Below are positions 2,861-6,915 of a stretch of 20,281 nt of DNA, one piece after another. The translations under genes and the position numbers were made by a program. The DNA is from a virus: positions 1 through 20,281 of the IMG/VR virus record IMGVR_UViG_3300047557_002428. One strand, given 5' to 3'. The number at the start of each line of letters is the position of its first letter. Positions within the stretch are counted from its first letter, which is position 1. Under the pieces are notes generated by a model that saw only the letters and a program-made list of their open reading frames with translations, made no database searches and was not told the origin of the DNA.

Positions 2861-2868
2861 TATTTATT
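2861..2868 (-). promoter_or_regulatory. late-promoter-like AATAAATA overlapping the regA stop
   Basis: AATAAATA on the minus strand; its TAA is the regA stop codon. It is followed by a small hairpin and then the terminator at 2781-2815, so it would produce a non-coding RNA of roughly 70 bases unless terminated transcripts read through into hsp20. Confidence 0.35.
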
Positions 2869-3310
2869 CGGTTTCTACTGTTTTTCCTTTCTTACCAATA
2901 TTATACTTTTGCTCCAAAATCCAATCACCCTTATCCTTATATGAAAGAACTTTAATTTGATTTAATGGAGCAATATCAGCAACCTTATCCTGATTAACAA
3001 CAGTAATAAGTCCCCAGTCAGCGAGAAGTCTAGCAATACGATTGCGACGTTGAACATCATTCACAGTAAGATTAGCGTGTTTACCATCAAGAGCAAATAA
3101 CTCCTTAAAATGAACGATGTAGTATCTACCTTGCTTATGAAGAATATGACAAGATTGATAAAGTTTTTTCTCTTTACGGGATGCAACTCCGATGCGGGTC
3201 AAAGTCTCACGAACTTTTAAGAAGTCATCTGGTTCATTAAGAATAACCTCTACCATTTGGTCTGAAGACCAATGGACTTCAGGTTCTACTGTTTGATGAG
3301 CAGTAGTCAT
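2864..3310 (-). CDS. regA: RegA translational repressor, 148 aa
   Basis: RNA-binding protein that represses translation of early phage mRNAs by binding around their start codons. The block from residue 19 closely follows T4 RegA: EPDDFLKVRETLTRIG, LYQSCHILHKQGRYYIVHFKELF, RLLADWGLI and a C-terminal KYNIG. It is about 25 residues longer than T4 RegA, with a 17-residue N-terminal extension and a KKGKTVETE tail. I keep ATG at 3310 because GGAGGAAC lies just before it and the ATG overlaps the gp62 TGA (ATGA). An internal ATG at residue 19 would match the T4 start but has no ribosome-binding site. It is the last gene of the clamp/clamp-loader run, followed by a terminator. Confidence 0.95.
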   Translation of the reverse strand: MTTAHQTVEPEVHWSSDQMVEVILNEPDDFLKVRETLTRIGVASRKEKKLYQSCHILHKQGRYYIVHFKELFALDGKHANLTVNDVQRRNRIARLLADWGLITVVNQDKVADIAPLNQIKVLSYKDKGDWILEQKYNIGKKGKTVETE

Positions 3311-3675
3311 TTTGTTCCTCCAATTTCAAGTCGTTGTTTAATAAAATTAAGTTGTTCTTTATTTAGAATCTTCAAAGCTTGAGATGCCTTTTCATTACTA
3401 TAACCATAGTATTTTTTAACGCATTCTAAATCTTTGACTTTATCCTTACGGAGCCAGGGAGAAAATCTCTTCTTTTTCCTTAGACTATTTAGATAAAATG
3501 AATATTGCATATCCTTATCTAGTTGATGGTAGATATTCATTTCATTGGCAAAAAGTATACAATCAATGTGTCCAGATAAACATTTATTAACAATAAAGGG
3601 GGGATATGAACTAATGTCTTCCGATAGATCTTCCTTTGTAAAATTAATTGAGTTTAACCAATCCTTAAGTTCCAT
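3307..3675 (-). CDS. 62: clamp loader small subunit gp62, 122 aa
   Basis: Small, non-ATPase subunit of the T4-type clamp loader, which with gp44 opens and loads the gp45 ring. Recognised from position and from SSYPPFIVNKCLSGHIDC (residues 22-39) and the following region with YHQLDKDMQYSFY. It is shorter than T4 gp62 (187 aa as I recall); the C-terminus ends in a basic helix (LNKEQLNFIKQRLE). The start overlaps the previous stop as TAATG, and its own stop overlaps regA as ATGA. One oddity is that gp44 and gp62 are not adjacent: the DruA-like gene separates them. Confidence 0.88.
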   Translation of the reverse strand: MELKDWLNSINFTKEDLSEDISSYPPFIVNKCLSGHIDCILFANEMNIYHQLDKDMQYSFYLNSLRKKKRFSPWLRKDKVKDLECVKKYYGYSNEKASQALKILNKEQLNFIKQRLEIGGTK

Positions 3676-4790
3676 TATCTAATAATTTGAATTTCTTCTT
3701 CATCTGTCCAGAGTTCGACCTTTGTTTTGAATCTATTTTCGTCTTTAAGTTTTTCATATCTCTTTGTCGCTTTTTTCTTCCACCAAGAGATTATATTTTC
3801 CAAATAAAACTTATCCCAGTTTTGACCACGAATAAGTTCCTTCTGTTCACCAAGAATTACTTCACGTACATTTGAATAACCATAATCAGAGATATAAAAT
3901 CTTTTCTTCTGAGTAAGATTAAAAGCCGTATTAATGACCGTATTAAACTCATCTAGTTTTTGTTTATCTTGAAGAGAATTCCTGATAATGGAAATCATTT
4001 TAGTCTGTCTCTTCATCTTTTTTGATGATGCTTTATTATCAGTCAGTGGGGTGTTATTGTTTAGATATGTGAATCTATCATGCAATTTGTGAAATACATC
4101 ATCGTGAAGTAATGGGAGAAACTTACTTTCGGTAAGACCTTTATATCTAATGAAGGGTTTAAGACCGTCATACTGAGATGCATCTGTAGTTGAACCATAA
4201 AGAGAAGTTGTTTCAAAAAGAGCAATGTCTTTCTCAAAGACTTCGTTGAGAGTCTCGCGGGCAAAGTGTGAACAACACATCAAAGCAAGTAATTTTCCAC
4301 CAAGATAGTTGTATCCAAAAGGTTGAGACGGGACAATCACAAATCCCATAGCTGCATGGCGATTAAAGATGGAAAGATTAGGAACTTTACCCAACCATTC
4401 ATTTCTTGGTTTTGAATTGATAGTAGGGGAACCAAATCTAATAAAACCAAGAACCTTCTTAGTATTCCTCTCAAAAATAATCCAACGCAATTCTCTTCCA
4501 GGAATATTCGACTCATTATTATGAGAAGATACTACTTGTAAAAGACTGTTGTAATAGTCTTGAGGAAGTGCTTGTTGAAAGCGATCTCCAATGAATTTAA
4601 TATCAAACTCCATATCTTCTGGATAAATATCATCATTGAAGAACTCATCATGAAGGGGGACCAATGTGTTTGTAGTTTTGATAACTTCTTTCTTTACAAA
4701 ACGCAGATAGTCTTCAATATTTCTCATCTGAGAGAAATATTTAATAAACTCATCTGCTGCCCATTGAGCATCTTGTTCAGAAACTATCAT
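3675..4790 (-). CDS. DruA-like (DUF4338-like) protein, 371 aa, inside the clamp-loader operon
   Basis: No function can be assigned with certainty. The middle third resembles DUF4338/DruA proteins: VLGFIRFGSP (113-122), RNEWLG (129-134), NRHAAMGFVIVP (143-154), GGKLLALM (164-171) and LFETTSLYG (191-199) follow the family's order of a LLGxxxFxS strand, a xNRxxxNSRFLIxP-like strand, a helix and a LxET strand. The C-terminal third is rich in lysine and tryptophan (WWKKKATKRYEK), suggesting nucleic-acid contact. DruA is known from the Druantia anti-phage system, but here the gene is single and overlaps both clamp-loader genes (ATGA with gp44, TAATG with gp62). That argues for a replication-linked role rather than defence. 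There is no clear Shine-Dalgarno, so coupling to gp44 translation is likely. The DUF4338 assignment is by eye. Confidence 0.7.
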   Translation of the reverse strand: MIVSEQDAQWAADEFIKYFSQMRNIEDYLRFVKKEVIKTTNTLVPLHDEFFNDDIYPEDMEFDIKFIGDRFQQALPQDYYNSLLQVVSSHNNESNIPGRELRWIIFERNTKKVLGFIRFGSPTINSKPRNEWLGKVPNLSIFNRHAAMGFVIVPSQPFGYNYLGGKLLALMCCSHFARETLNEVFEKDIALFETTSLYGSTTDASQYDGLKPFIRYKGLTESKFLPLLHDDVFHKLHDRFTYLNNNTPLTDNKASSKKMKRQTKMISIIRNSLQDKQKLDEFNTVINTAFNLTQKKRFYISDYGYSNVREVILGEQKELIRGQNWDKFYLENIISWWKKKATKRYEKLKDENRFKTKVELWTDEEEIQIIR

Positions 4791-5731
4791 TTAAATTCAC
4801 ACTCACACATAATTTCTGTAAGGGCTGCAAGAAGGTTCACTTCTTGATCAGCCACGAACGCACATTGGTATTGATACTTAGCAATAATAAGAACGGCAGC
4901 AGGGATAGACTGTGGTGAAAGGCAATCAAAAGTGGAGTCATAAATCCTGCGAAGTAGACTACTAGCATCGTTGTCCAAGTTAGAGACCACCCACTTTCGG
5001 ACTTCGGTAAAGTTTTTATCTTTGAGGTTTTTGATAAGTTCATTTACAGAGATGTCTGAGAAAGATGCAAGAATGCCCGAGTCGATTTTTCCTCCTGTAG
5101 AATACCTCTGACATTCGTTGAGGACCCTACGAAAATCTGGGAAGTGTTTTGTAACAAGTTCTGCAACGACTTTTTCATCGTACTCAATCTTTTCCGCATC
5201 CAGGATTGATTGAAGTCGTTGAAAGAAACTTCCTGCAAGTTGAACTCTTTGCTTTCCTTTGATGGTAAAGTCGATGACGGCACATCGGGAGTGAAGAGGT
5301 TCAATAATTTTGTTCTTGTAATTGCAGGTGAAGATGAATCGGCAGTTGCTATAAAATGCCTCAATATTCGCCCGTAGTAGGAGTTGAACGTCGTTTCCCG
5401 TGTTATCTGCTTCGTCGATAATGATGACTTTGTGTTTAGAAGATCCCGTAAGTGAGACGGTCGAAGCAAAGTTCTTCGCTTGGTTTCGTACAGTATCCAA
5501 GAAACGTCCTTCGTCGGATCCGTTGATGACATAATAATCTGCTCCCAGTTCATTACATAATGCTTTTGCGATTGTAGTTTTACCAATACCAGGAGGTCCT
5601 GCAAGAAGGAGATTTGGGATCTCACCCTTTTCTACAAACTCCTTAAATGTTTTTTTAGTTTCGTCAGGAAGAATACAATCATCAATTACTTGAGGACGGT
5701 ATTTTTCGGTCAGAAGAAATTCACTTGCCAT
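4787..5731 (-). CDS. 44: clamp loader ATPase gp44, 314 aa
   Basis: AAA+ ATPase subunit of the clamp loader (RFC/DnaX-like), which loads gp45 at primer-template junctions. Walker A is GPPGIGKT (45-52), Walker B is IIIDEAD (103-109), sensor 1 lies in FIFTCN (132-137) and the arginine finger is the SRC motif (148-150). The N-terminal LTEKYRP is the usual family opening. Length is close to T4 gp44 (319 aa). The last bases overlap the DruA-like gene as ATGA. Only three bases separate it from the stop of the upstream 171-aa gene, so it belongs to the same operon. Confidence 0.97.
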   Translation of the reverse strand: MASEFLLTEKYRPQVIDDCILPDETKKTFKEFVEKGEIPNLLLAGPPGIGKTTIAKALCNELGADYYVINGSDEGRFLDTVRNQAKNFASTVSLTGSSKHKVIIIDEADNTGNDVQLLLRANIEAFYSNCRFIFTCNYKNKIIEPLHSRCAVIDFTIKGKQRVQLAGSFFQRLQSILDAEKIEYDEKVVAELVTKHFPDFRRVLNECQRYSTGGKIDSGILASFSDISVNELIKNLKDKNFTEVRKWVVSNLDNDASSLLRRIYDSTFDCLSPQSIPAAVLIIAKYQYQCAFVADQEVNLLAALTEIMCECEFK

Positions 5732-5734
5732 AAT

Positions 5735-6250
5735 TTAATTTATCCACGAAGGTTTTCTTTCAGGCATTTTGAGGTAATTATCAGACACCCAAGGTTTGGA
5801 TGCAATGTACCTCTTGTATGCTTCAAATGTATTAATAGTGTCATCAAATTTCCATTCCTCAGGCATAGCACGAGCAAATGGAGTTACTTCTGTAATCTTA
5901 CCTTTCGGAAACAAATAATATGCATCCACAAGAGTTTTATAACAGGAGTGAGTTTTATTATACCGCAGGCAGTATTCATCAGACAAGTTCAATCCCCACT
6001 TGATTAACCAGTAGGCATTGTGGATACTCTCCAGTGCCCACTTGGTACAAGGATGATTGCGGAATGCTCCTTTATCGGTTTTGTAAGGGGTTCCATCTGC
6101 CTTAGGAAGAGTGCCGTAATTGTGTCCCCATTTTTCTGATGCGACGATAGAAAGCATTTGACAGCATTCAAGTGGCATCTTGACAATATGTTTGTCGGGA
6201 AGGCAAATGGCACTTTCAGCAGGCCAAGGAGAAGTGACAAAGATGTTCAT
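5735..6250 (-). CDS. conserved phage protein with endonuclease V (DenV)-like pattern, 171 aa
   Basis: Starts at ATG 6250, sharing one base with the gp45 stop (TGATG). The N-terminus MNIFVTSPWPAESAICLPDKHIVKM, with LECCQML after it, belongs to a phage family that I know only as conserved hypothetical. It resembles T4 pyrimidine-dimer glycosylase DenV: LPDKH matches LADQH, and a glutamate (E28) follows the histidine (H21) at the same seven-residue spacing as H16 to catalytic E23 in T4. Later NHPCTKWA and a helix with EYCLRY, and a C-terminal KRYIASKPW...KPSW, recall the rest of that fold. The T4 nucleophile is the N-terminal threonine amine; here Asn follows Met, so the Met is probably retained and that chemistry may be absent. 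A UV-repair role is a guess supported by its position between clamp and clamp loader. Confidence 0.65.
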   Translation of the reverse strand: MNIFVTSPWPAESAICLPDKHIVKMPLECCQMLSIVASEKWGHNYGTLPKADGTPYKTDKGAFRNHPCTKWALESIHNAYWLIKWGLNLSDEYCLRYNKTHSCYKTLVDAYYLFPKGKITEVTPFARAMPEEWKFDDTINTFEAYKRYIASKPWVSDNYLKMPERKPSWIN

Positions 6251-6915
6251 CAACCAAAAGTAGAATCAGGCTCCAGAGCAATATAATAAGTCACATCAAA
6301 TCCAGTATTCTTGAATCGTGACAAAAGTTTAGATGAGATGACTACCTCATAGTTGCCAGGAATAATCTTGATATTTTCAACCTTAAAGTTGAAAGTGAAT
6401 ACCTCATCAGTTTCACCAACAATCACAGAGAAATCGTTGGAAGTATCGTTTTTCTTATCACGAACAACCAGTTTTACAACGCCTGCTTCACCAACCACAG
6501 ACAAGTCAGGAAGTTGATACACAGCAGCAGCCTTAAGGAGTTTATCAAGTTCCTTGGTATCAAGAATGAAACAAACATCTTCGGAAGGAAGTGTAATAGA
6601 TTTATCTGGAGGAGTGACAATTACATTGGGATCAGCAAAGAAATACTTTGAACGAGATCGACCTTCTTTAATAACCACATATCCATCGTTCTGAAAATCA
6701 AGTTCTGCATTCTGATGCAAATTAAGTCCATTCAGAAACTGGTTCAAATCATAGATGCCAAAATCTTTGGGCAGTTCTTCTTCAATTGTTGCTTCTGCAA
6801 GAATGTTCTTCATCACCGAAATTGTGCGAAGATTATTTCCTTCTTTAAACAGAATCGACTGATTGATAGAAGAAAAGTTCTTGAGAAGTGTAAGAGTTTT
6901 ATCAGAGAGTTTCAT
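6250..6915 (-). CDS. 45: sliding clamp gp45, 221 aa
   Basis: Trimeric DNA sliding clamp. It tethers gp43 to DNA and, in T4, also activates late transcription with gp55. Recognised from the opening MKLSDKTLTLLKNFSSIN, the IYDLNQFL stretch (residues 54-61) and the overall T4 gp45-like length (T4 is 228 aa). It sits directly upstream of the endonuclease-V-like gene and gp44, as expected in this phage group. Its stop shares one base with the next ATG. There is no strong Shine-Dalgarno, and only five bases separate it from the upstream stop, so translation is probably coupled. Confidence 0.95.
   Translation of the reverse strand: MKLSDKTLTLLKNFSSINQSILFKEGNNLRTISVMKNILAEATIEEELPKDFGIYDLNQFLNGLNLHQNAELDFQNDGYVVIKEGRSRSKYFFADPNVIVTPPDKSITLPSEDVCFILDTKELDKLLKAAAVYQLPDLSVVGEAGVVKLVVRDKKNDTSNDFSVIVGETDEVFTFNFKVENIKIIPGNYEVVISSKLLSRFKNTGFDVTYYIALEPDSTFG

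What the first reader, a model, noticed from the sequence alone, without database searches (positions are those of the whole stretch)
3675..4790. DruA/DUF4338-like protein embedded between the two clamp-loader genes
The motif order LGFxxFGSP, NRHxxMGFVIVP, GGKLLAL, LFETTSLYG resembles DUF4338, the fold of DruA from the Druantia defence system. It is locked by start/stop overlaps on both sides into gp44-X-gp62, separating two subunits that must assemble together. A phage core-replication use of this fold would suggest that DruA-type proteins act on replication or DNA-processing intermediates, and could point to the ancestry of the defence component. Alternatively it might be a decoy or inhibitor of host Druantia.
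Basis: partly seen in the sequence, partly recalled or inferred. Interest (0 to 1): 0.65.

Follow-up and report, generated by a model that had tools for sequence, protein, structure and literature searches.

The report
DruA-like gene replacing phage DNA methylase
A gene in marine bacteria-infecting viruses, related to a bacterial anti-virus protein of unknown chemistry (DruA), sits exactly where relatives keep a DNA-methylating enzyme and almost never coexists with it, which suggests that it chemically marks the virus's own DNA.

Summary
The ORF is real (3675-4790, minus strand, 371 aa), under strong purifying selection, and belongs to Pfam DruA (PF14236, 36.7 bits, cut-off 27). Profile comparison with bacterial DruA (E 5.8e-12) and predicted structures of both confirm this. 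DruA-like proteins in Synechococcus phages were already reported (Phold, NAR 2026). The "replication subunit" reading is not supported. The gene is a minority accessory: present in about 26 of some 460 cyanophage records with gp62. It lies between gp43 and uvsX in HTVC008M-type pelagiphages and upstream of gp47/46 in S-B68. The new observation concerns what it replaces. The gp44-gp62 slot normally holds a D12-class adenine methylase (Dam). Dam occurs in 14/16 phages without the gene, 13 of them in the slot, but in 1/21 with it (p about 3e-7). The two genes swap at least 7 times on a gp44+gp62 tree. The fold is GNAT-like, and transposase-linked DruA proteins align with Mom, the Mu DNA-modification enzyme (E 7.5e-6). 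Phages with the gene also tolerate CCGG and GGCC sites that Dam-type phages avoid. Best explanation: a DruA-family enzyme that modifies phage DNA for self-protection. The chemistry is inferred, not shown.

The parts
3675..4790 (-). DruA-family (PF14236) GNAT-like protein X, 371 aa, phrog_19197
4787..5731 (-). gp44-type clamp-loader large subunit; upstream border of the slot, ATGA overlap with X
   Evidence: PF21328/PF00004, phrog_168
3307..3675 (-). gp62-type clamp-loader small subunit; downstream border of the slot, TAATG overlap with X
   Evidence: PF16790, phrog_225
4320..4355 (-). codons of residues 146-157, AAMGFVIVPSQP: predicted strand beta-4 (146-154) leading into the conserved QPxGxN loop
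   Evidence: alignments and model
4290..4325 (-). codons of residues 156-167, QPFGYNYLGGKL: candidate cofactor loop; Q156 P157 G159 N161 G164 G165 K166 L167 invariant in X and paralogs
4167..4214 (-). codons of residues 193-208, ETTSLYGSTTDASQYD: invariant T194 T195 L197 Y198 S205 Y207; position of the ETFVD...GTcYrAANW motif of other DruA proteins and of SFAD...GVVYQASNF in Mom
2864..3310 (-). regA translational repressor, next in the same overlapping gene string
   Evidence: PF01818

Best explanation
X is a DruA-family, GNAT-like enzyme that most likely modifies nucleobases of the phage's own DNA, protecting it from host restriction. It occupies the early, replication-coupled slot gp44-X-gp62 in which most cyanophages carry the adenine methylase Dam, and it stands in for Dam. 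Shown here: family membership, the predicted fold, purifying selection, and repeated slot exchange with near-absence of Dam elsewhere in the genome. Inferred: that X acts on DNA, that it transfers a group from an acyl-CoA-like donor through the QPxGxNxxGGKLL loop in the manner of Mom, and that the gain is restriction resistance.
For: (1) Replacement: Dam PF02086 in 14/16 X- genomes (13 in the slot) against 1/21 X+ (Fisher 2.7e-7). Five X- phages fetched after the idea was formed all had slot Dam, and four further X+ phages had none. (2) By organism name in the phage collection: gp62 in 376 Synechococcus, 61 Cyanophage and 24 Prochlorococcus records; slot-type Dam in 330, 60 and 24; X in 25, 1 and 0. 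(3) At least 7 X/Dam switches on a gp44+gp62 tree, 4 changes forced by well-supported branches; sister pairs Bellamy(Dam)/S-SM2(X) and P-SSM2(Dam)/S-SRM01(X). (4) The three X- phages without slot Dam keep another DNA-modification gene: two other Dam genes (ACG-2014f), a C5 methylase (S-B05), a Mom (DSL-LC03; internal stop). (5) Fold: model pLDDT 88, pTM 0.85; PDB neighbours are GNATs; a phage Mom among viral matches, prob 0.95. (6) Mom and DruA HMMs hit the same ORFs in three bacterial genomes; transposase-linked DruA aligns with Mom, E 7.5e-6, while unrelated control profiles score under 2%. (7) CCGG and GGCC avoidance is weaker in X+ phages.
Against: No chemistry was tested. X against Mom directly is not significant by profile, and the structural match has E 0.025. 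The Asp of the Mom/transposase-DruA motif (ETFVD/SFAD) is not kept in X (TTSLY). Four X+ genomes also encode a true Mom and one a Dam, so the functions are not fully redundant. Host and lineage confound the restriction-site statistics, which come from an exploratory test with 16 sites.
Confidence: 0.58

Rival explanations
1. X is a counter-defence protein that protects phage DNA without covalent modification, for instance by binding DNA or a restriction enzyme, and so relieves the need for Dam.
For: It would explain the exchange with Dam and relaxed site avoidance equally well; the Mom-type Asp is not conserved in X.
Against: The deeply conserved enzyme-like loops and GNAT-like fold favour catalysis.
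Confidence: 0.17
2. X is an accessory subunit or regulator of the clamp loader or replisome.
For: Overlapping start/stop codons with gp44 and gp62; in HTVC008M-type phages X lies between gp43 and uvsX, still among replication genes.
Against: Absent from most relatives with the same replisome; up to three ORFs between gp44 and X; away from all clamp-loader genes in S-B68; in other phages Dam, endonuclease genes or glutaredoxin fill the same slot.
Confidence: 0.1
3. The gp44-gp62 interval is only a recombination-prone cargo slot, and X and Dam alternate there by chance without shared function.
For: The slot also holds other genes: PurS-like, denV, HNH endonuclease, NrdC, 2OG-Fe(II) oxygenase.
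Against: The slot often holds several genes, so it is not limited to one (P-SSM2 has nine), yet X and Dam never share it in 21 X+ records; Dam is also nearly absent elsewhere in X+ genomes.
Confidence: 0.11
4. X is a decoy or inhibitor of host Druantia.
For: Shared family with DruA.
Against: Host Druantia could not be tested; catalytic-looking residues are invariant; X takes the place of Dam rather than appearing beside it.
Confidence: 0.04

Closest known systems
DruA (PF14236/DUF4338), Druantia type I component and its many homologs outside Druantia
   Same: Same family by Pfam, PADLOC (weak) and profile-profile search; same order of predicted secondary-structure elements; shared LGGKL and TTsS...Y motifs; identical top four viral structure matches.
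   Different: No DruB-E partners found; part of a phage early-gene string; carries the QPxGxNY loop and TTSLYG motif, which the bacterial set compared here lacks.
Mom of phage Mu (PF25680; adenine carbamoylmethylation, from general knowledge)
   Same: GNAT-like fold; linked to DruA through transposase-linked DruA proteins; fold match of X to a phage Mom.
   Different: No direct sequence match of X; the Asp motif differs; X carries a long C-terminal helical part.
Dam-type D12 adenine methylase of cyanophages (PF02086)
   Same: Same genomic slot and near-exclusive distribution; presumably the same protective role.
   Different: Unrelated protein: no profile match to X.
DUF4338 paralog of pelagiphages (EXVC030M gene 22; second copy in HTVC008M)
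   Same: About 28% identical, shares the invariant loop residues.
   Different: Different place (next to peptide deformylase/MazG genes), stronger DruA score (80 bits).
Phold report of a DruA-like protein in S-PRM1 (PMC12774648)
   Same: Same family: six Synechococcus phages with a fold match to DruA.
   Different: In the passages read, no genomic context, Dam replacement, Mom link or function is given.

Membership tests
DruA / DUF4338 (PF14236) | Score above Pfam's curated cut-off | tested here: met
   36.7 bits against 27; relatives 35-45 bits, paralogs 66-80
DruA / DUF4338 (PF14236) | Profile and fold similarity to bacterial DruA over the core domain | tested here: met
   hhalign E 5.8e-12, prob 97.5, 182 columns; control profiles about 1% or less; matching secondary-structure order and the same top viral structure hits
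Druantia defence system | DruA encoded beside the other Druantia genes (DruB-DruE, YprA-type helicase) | tested here: not met
   Ten window proteins show no DruB-DruE hits in PADLOC; the flanking genes are replication genes
Mom (PF25680) | Match to the Mom model or profile | tested here: not met
   Not among Pfam hits of X at E <= 1; hhalign X/Mom prob 0.2
Mom-like nucleobase-modifying enzymes (functional class) | Distant relationship to Mom | tested here: inconclusive
   Transitive through transposase-linked DruA (E 7.5e-6 and 1.2e-7); fold match prob 0.95, E 0.025
Mom-like nucleobase-modifying enzymes (functional class) | A modified base in DNA that depends on the gene | not testable with these tools
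   Needs nucleoside mass spectrometry
GNAT superfamily | beta-alpha-beta-beta-...-beta-alpha-beta core and acyl-CoA loop between beta-4 and alpha-3 | tested here: inconclusive
   Predicted topology fits; nearest PDB folds are GNATs but E >= 0.01; generic GNAT profile does not match
T4-type replisome core | Conserved presence with gp44-gp62 in relatives | tested here: not met
   31 records with X against 376 Synechococcus and 85 other cyanophage records with gp62

The most novel reading that the evidence does not exclude
The DruA/DUF4338 family as a whole consists of Mom-related GNAT-type nucleobase-modification enzymes. Cyanophages use a branch of it instead of Dam to hypermodify their DNA, and Druantia type I would use the same chemistry to mark self or invading DNA.
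Probability: 0.38. Interest if true: 0.85.

Novelty: new variant of a known kind. Interest (0 to 1): 0.62.

Why it matters
No activity for DruA turned up in the papers searched here. A natural exchange of a DruA-family gene with a DNA adenine methylase in culturable phages gives a concrete, cheap test: the nucleosides of S-PRM1, S-SM2 or S-T4 DNA. If positive it would assign chemistry to a large orphan family, tie it to Mom, and add a modification route in abundant marine viruses.

Tried and rejected
Solved-structure search by sequence: nothing meaningful. Direct X-Mom profile comparison, and a broad DruA superfamily profile against Mom: not significant; only the transposase-linked DruA subset reaches Mom. 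A first hhalign run was in global mode by mistake and was repeated locally. An iterative search from Mu Mom also pulled in DruA proteins, but on a small set with a loose threshold, so I do not rely on it. Genome-contig scan with the paralog alignment found no bacterial relative; a bacterial DruA query then worked. GATC avoidance does not differ between Dam and X phages, so there is no sign that X protects that site in particular. Promoter scan at chance level, terminator scan close to it. Papers: none found that links DruA with Mom or with cyanophage Dam. The Mu Mom paper of 2020 is not held, so published catalytic residues were not used.

Full report
The observation. The window is a piece of a T4-like (Kyanoviridae-type) marine phage: scaffold, major head protein, UvsY, helicase, late sigma factor, SbcC/D-type recombination proteins, CobS, gp45, denV, gp44, X, gp62, regA, Hsp20, all on the minus strand. 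X (3675-4790, 371 aa) overlaps gp44 by ATGA and gp62 by TAATG. It matches Pfam DruA at 36.7 bits (cut-off 27) and fills PHROG 19197 end to end. Relatives occur in 31 phage records and in hundreds of IMG/VR contigs. Median dN/dS is 0.056.

Is it DruA? Yes as a protein family, no as a Druantia component. A profile of 46 X orthologs aligned with 60 bacterial DruA proteins gives E 5.8e-12 over 182 columns, whereas gp44, gp62, regA, Dam, Hsp20, gp43, uvsX, denV and generic GNAT profiles stay near or under 1% probability. AlphaFold models of X (pLDDT 88, pTM 0.85) and of a bacterial DruA (pLDDT 81) have the same order of core strands and helices and find the same four best viral relatives, three of them in giant viruses. 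No DruB-DruE homolog showed up among ten other window proteins. The Phold paper (PMC12774648) had already noted DruA-like folds in six Synechococcus phages, so the resemblance itself is not new.

Where the gene sits. In nearly all loci of the window-like and S-SM2-like groups X lies directly before gp62, with or without small ORFs between gp44 and X. HTVC008M-type phages carry it between gp43 and uvsX, and S-B68 carries it upstream of gp47/gp46. It is therefore not bound to the clamp loader. A paralog lies beside peptide deformylase and MazG genes in pelagiphages.

What the slot holds without X. In P-SSM2, P-HM2, P-TIM68, Bellamy, S-SCSM1, ACG-2014d, S-RIM4 and S-RIM44 the gp44-gp62 interval contains an adenine methylase of family PF02086. 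Five more X- phages, fetched after the hypothesis was formed, all had it. Genome-wide, Dam is found in 14/16 X- records but in only 1/21 X+ records (S-SCSM2R, a distant Dam elsewhere). Three X- phages were picked because their annotation showed a methylase; without them the slot comparison is 10/13 against 0/21, p 2e-6. Some IMG/VR X+ records are partial, and G002 and G003 are near-duplicates, so absence there is weaker evidence. In the whole collection, counts by organism name nearly add up: Cyanophage 60 Dam + 1 X = 61 with gp62, Prochlorococcus 24 + 0 = 24, Synechococcus 330 + 25 = 355 of 376; the overlap was checked record by record only for the X+ phages named above. On a gp44+gp62 tree the label changes at least 7 times between X and Dam, with Bellamy/S-SM2 and P-SSM2/S-SRM01 as strongly supported sister pairs. 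The X- phages without slot Dam have other DNA-modifying genes: two Dam genes elsewhere, a C5 methylase, or a Mom gene with one stop inside the match. Of the first 17 X+ records, 13 have none of Dam, C5 methylase or Mom.

Link to DNA modification by fold. The strand-helix order fits a GNAT, and the nearest solved folds are GNATs, though with weak E-values. A phage Mom is among the viral fold matches (prob 0.95, E 0.025). The Mom Pfam model and the DruA Pfam model independently mark the same three bacterial ORFs. Transposase-linked DruA proteins align with Mom over 121 columns at E 7.5e-6: HYLG with HYS, ETFVD...GTcYrAANW with SFAD...GVVYQASNF. X plus paralogs align with that DruA subset at E 1.2e-7. 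Direct X-Mom alignment fails, so the link is transitive. X keeps the conserved Tyr (Y207) of the second motif but not the Asp of the first; instead it has invariant TTSLY and a QPxGxNxxGGKLL loop placed like the acyl-CoA loop of GNATs. That placement is my inference.

Restriction sites. In about 100 kb from each of 20 phages, CCGG is wholly absent in 10 of 11 Dam phages (9 of 10 if P-TIM68, with an expectation near 1, is left out) but in only 1 of 9 X phages. GGCC is depleted to a median 0.22 in Dam phages and 0.46 in X phages (p 0.002 each, 16 sites tested). GATC shows no difference. This is what broader protection by X would produce, but lineage and host differ too, so I treat it as a hint.

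Verdict. The gene is a DruA-family member; the evidence that it stands in for Dam is good; that it modifies DNA is the most economical explanation; the chemistry is open.

Noticed in passing
L732-L736 (S-SM2), L812-L816 (S-RIM8), L797-L801 (ACG-2014d), L807-L811 (S-RIM44), L822-L826 (S-BM3): Individual cyanophages almost or wholly lack one particular 4-base palindrome in about 100 kb: CTAG in S-SM2, GATC (0.16) in S-RIM8 despite two Dam genes, TCGA in ACG-2014d, GTAC in S-RIM44, TTAA (0.14) in S-BM3. This may mark a host or phage-encoded restriction enzyme.
   Followed up: no
L001:6001-7125 and L086:1231-2370 (HTVC008M); L002:5602-6900 (EXVC030M): Pelagiphages carry a second DUF4338 paralog beside peptide deformylase and MazG genes; HTVC008M has both copies and keeps a 2OG-Fe(II) oxygenase gene in the gp44-gp62 slot.
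   Followed up: partly
G004:C1:229061-229621, G008:C1:7990-8580, G009:C1:16580-17185, W25:C1:216832-217392: Bona fide Mom-family genes (PF25680) in four X-carrying cyanophage genomes or contigs, among them close relatives of the window.
   Followed up: partly
BFVD A0A3G4ZXG3, A0A5K0UAJ3, A0A3G4ZRA1: The closest viral structure matches of both X and bacterial DruA are uncharacterised proteins of giant viruses (Faunusvirus, Yasminevirus, Dasosvirus), two of them over 1100 aa.
   Followed up: no
L678, L680, L681 and neighbours (L676-L691): Several DruA-like proteins in bacteria run on into transposase-like sequence, so the name 'Druantia anti-phage system protein DruA' is applied well beyond Druantia.
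   Followed up: no
W13:C1:68899-69483: DSL-LC03 has a Mom gene with an internal stop inside the matched stretch and an HNH homing endonuclease gene in the gp44-gp62 slot.
   Followed up: no
window 5735-6253 (-): denV-type pyrimidine dimer glycosylase between gp45 and gp44; the mechanical ORF starts at TTG.
   Followed up: no
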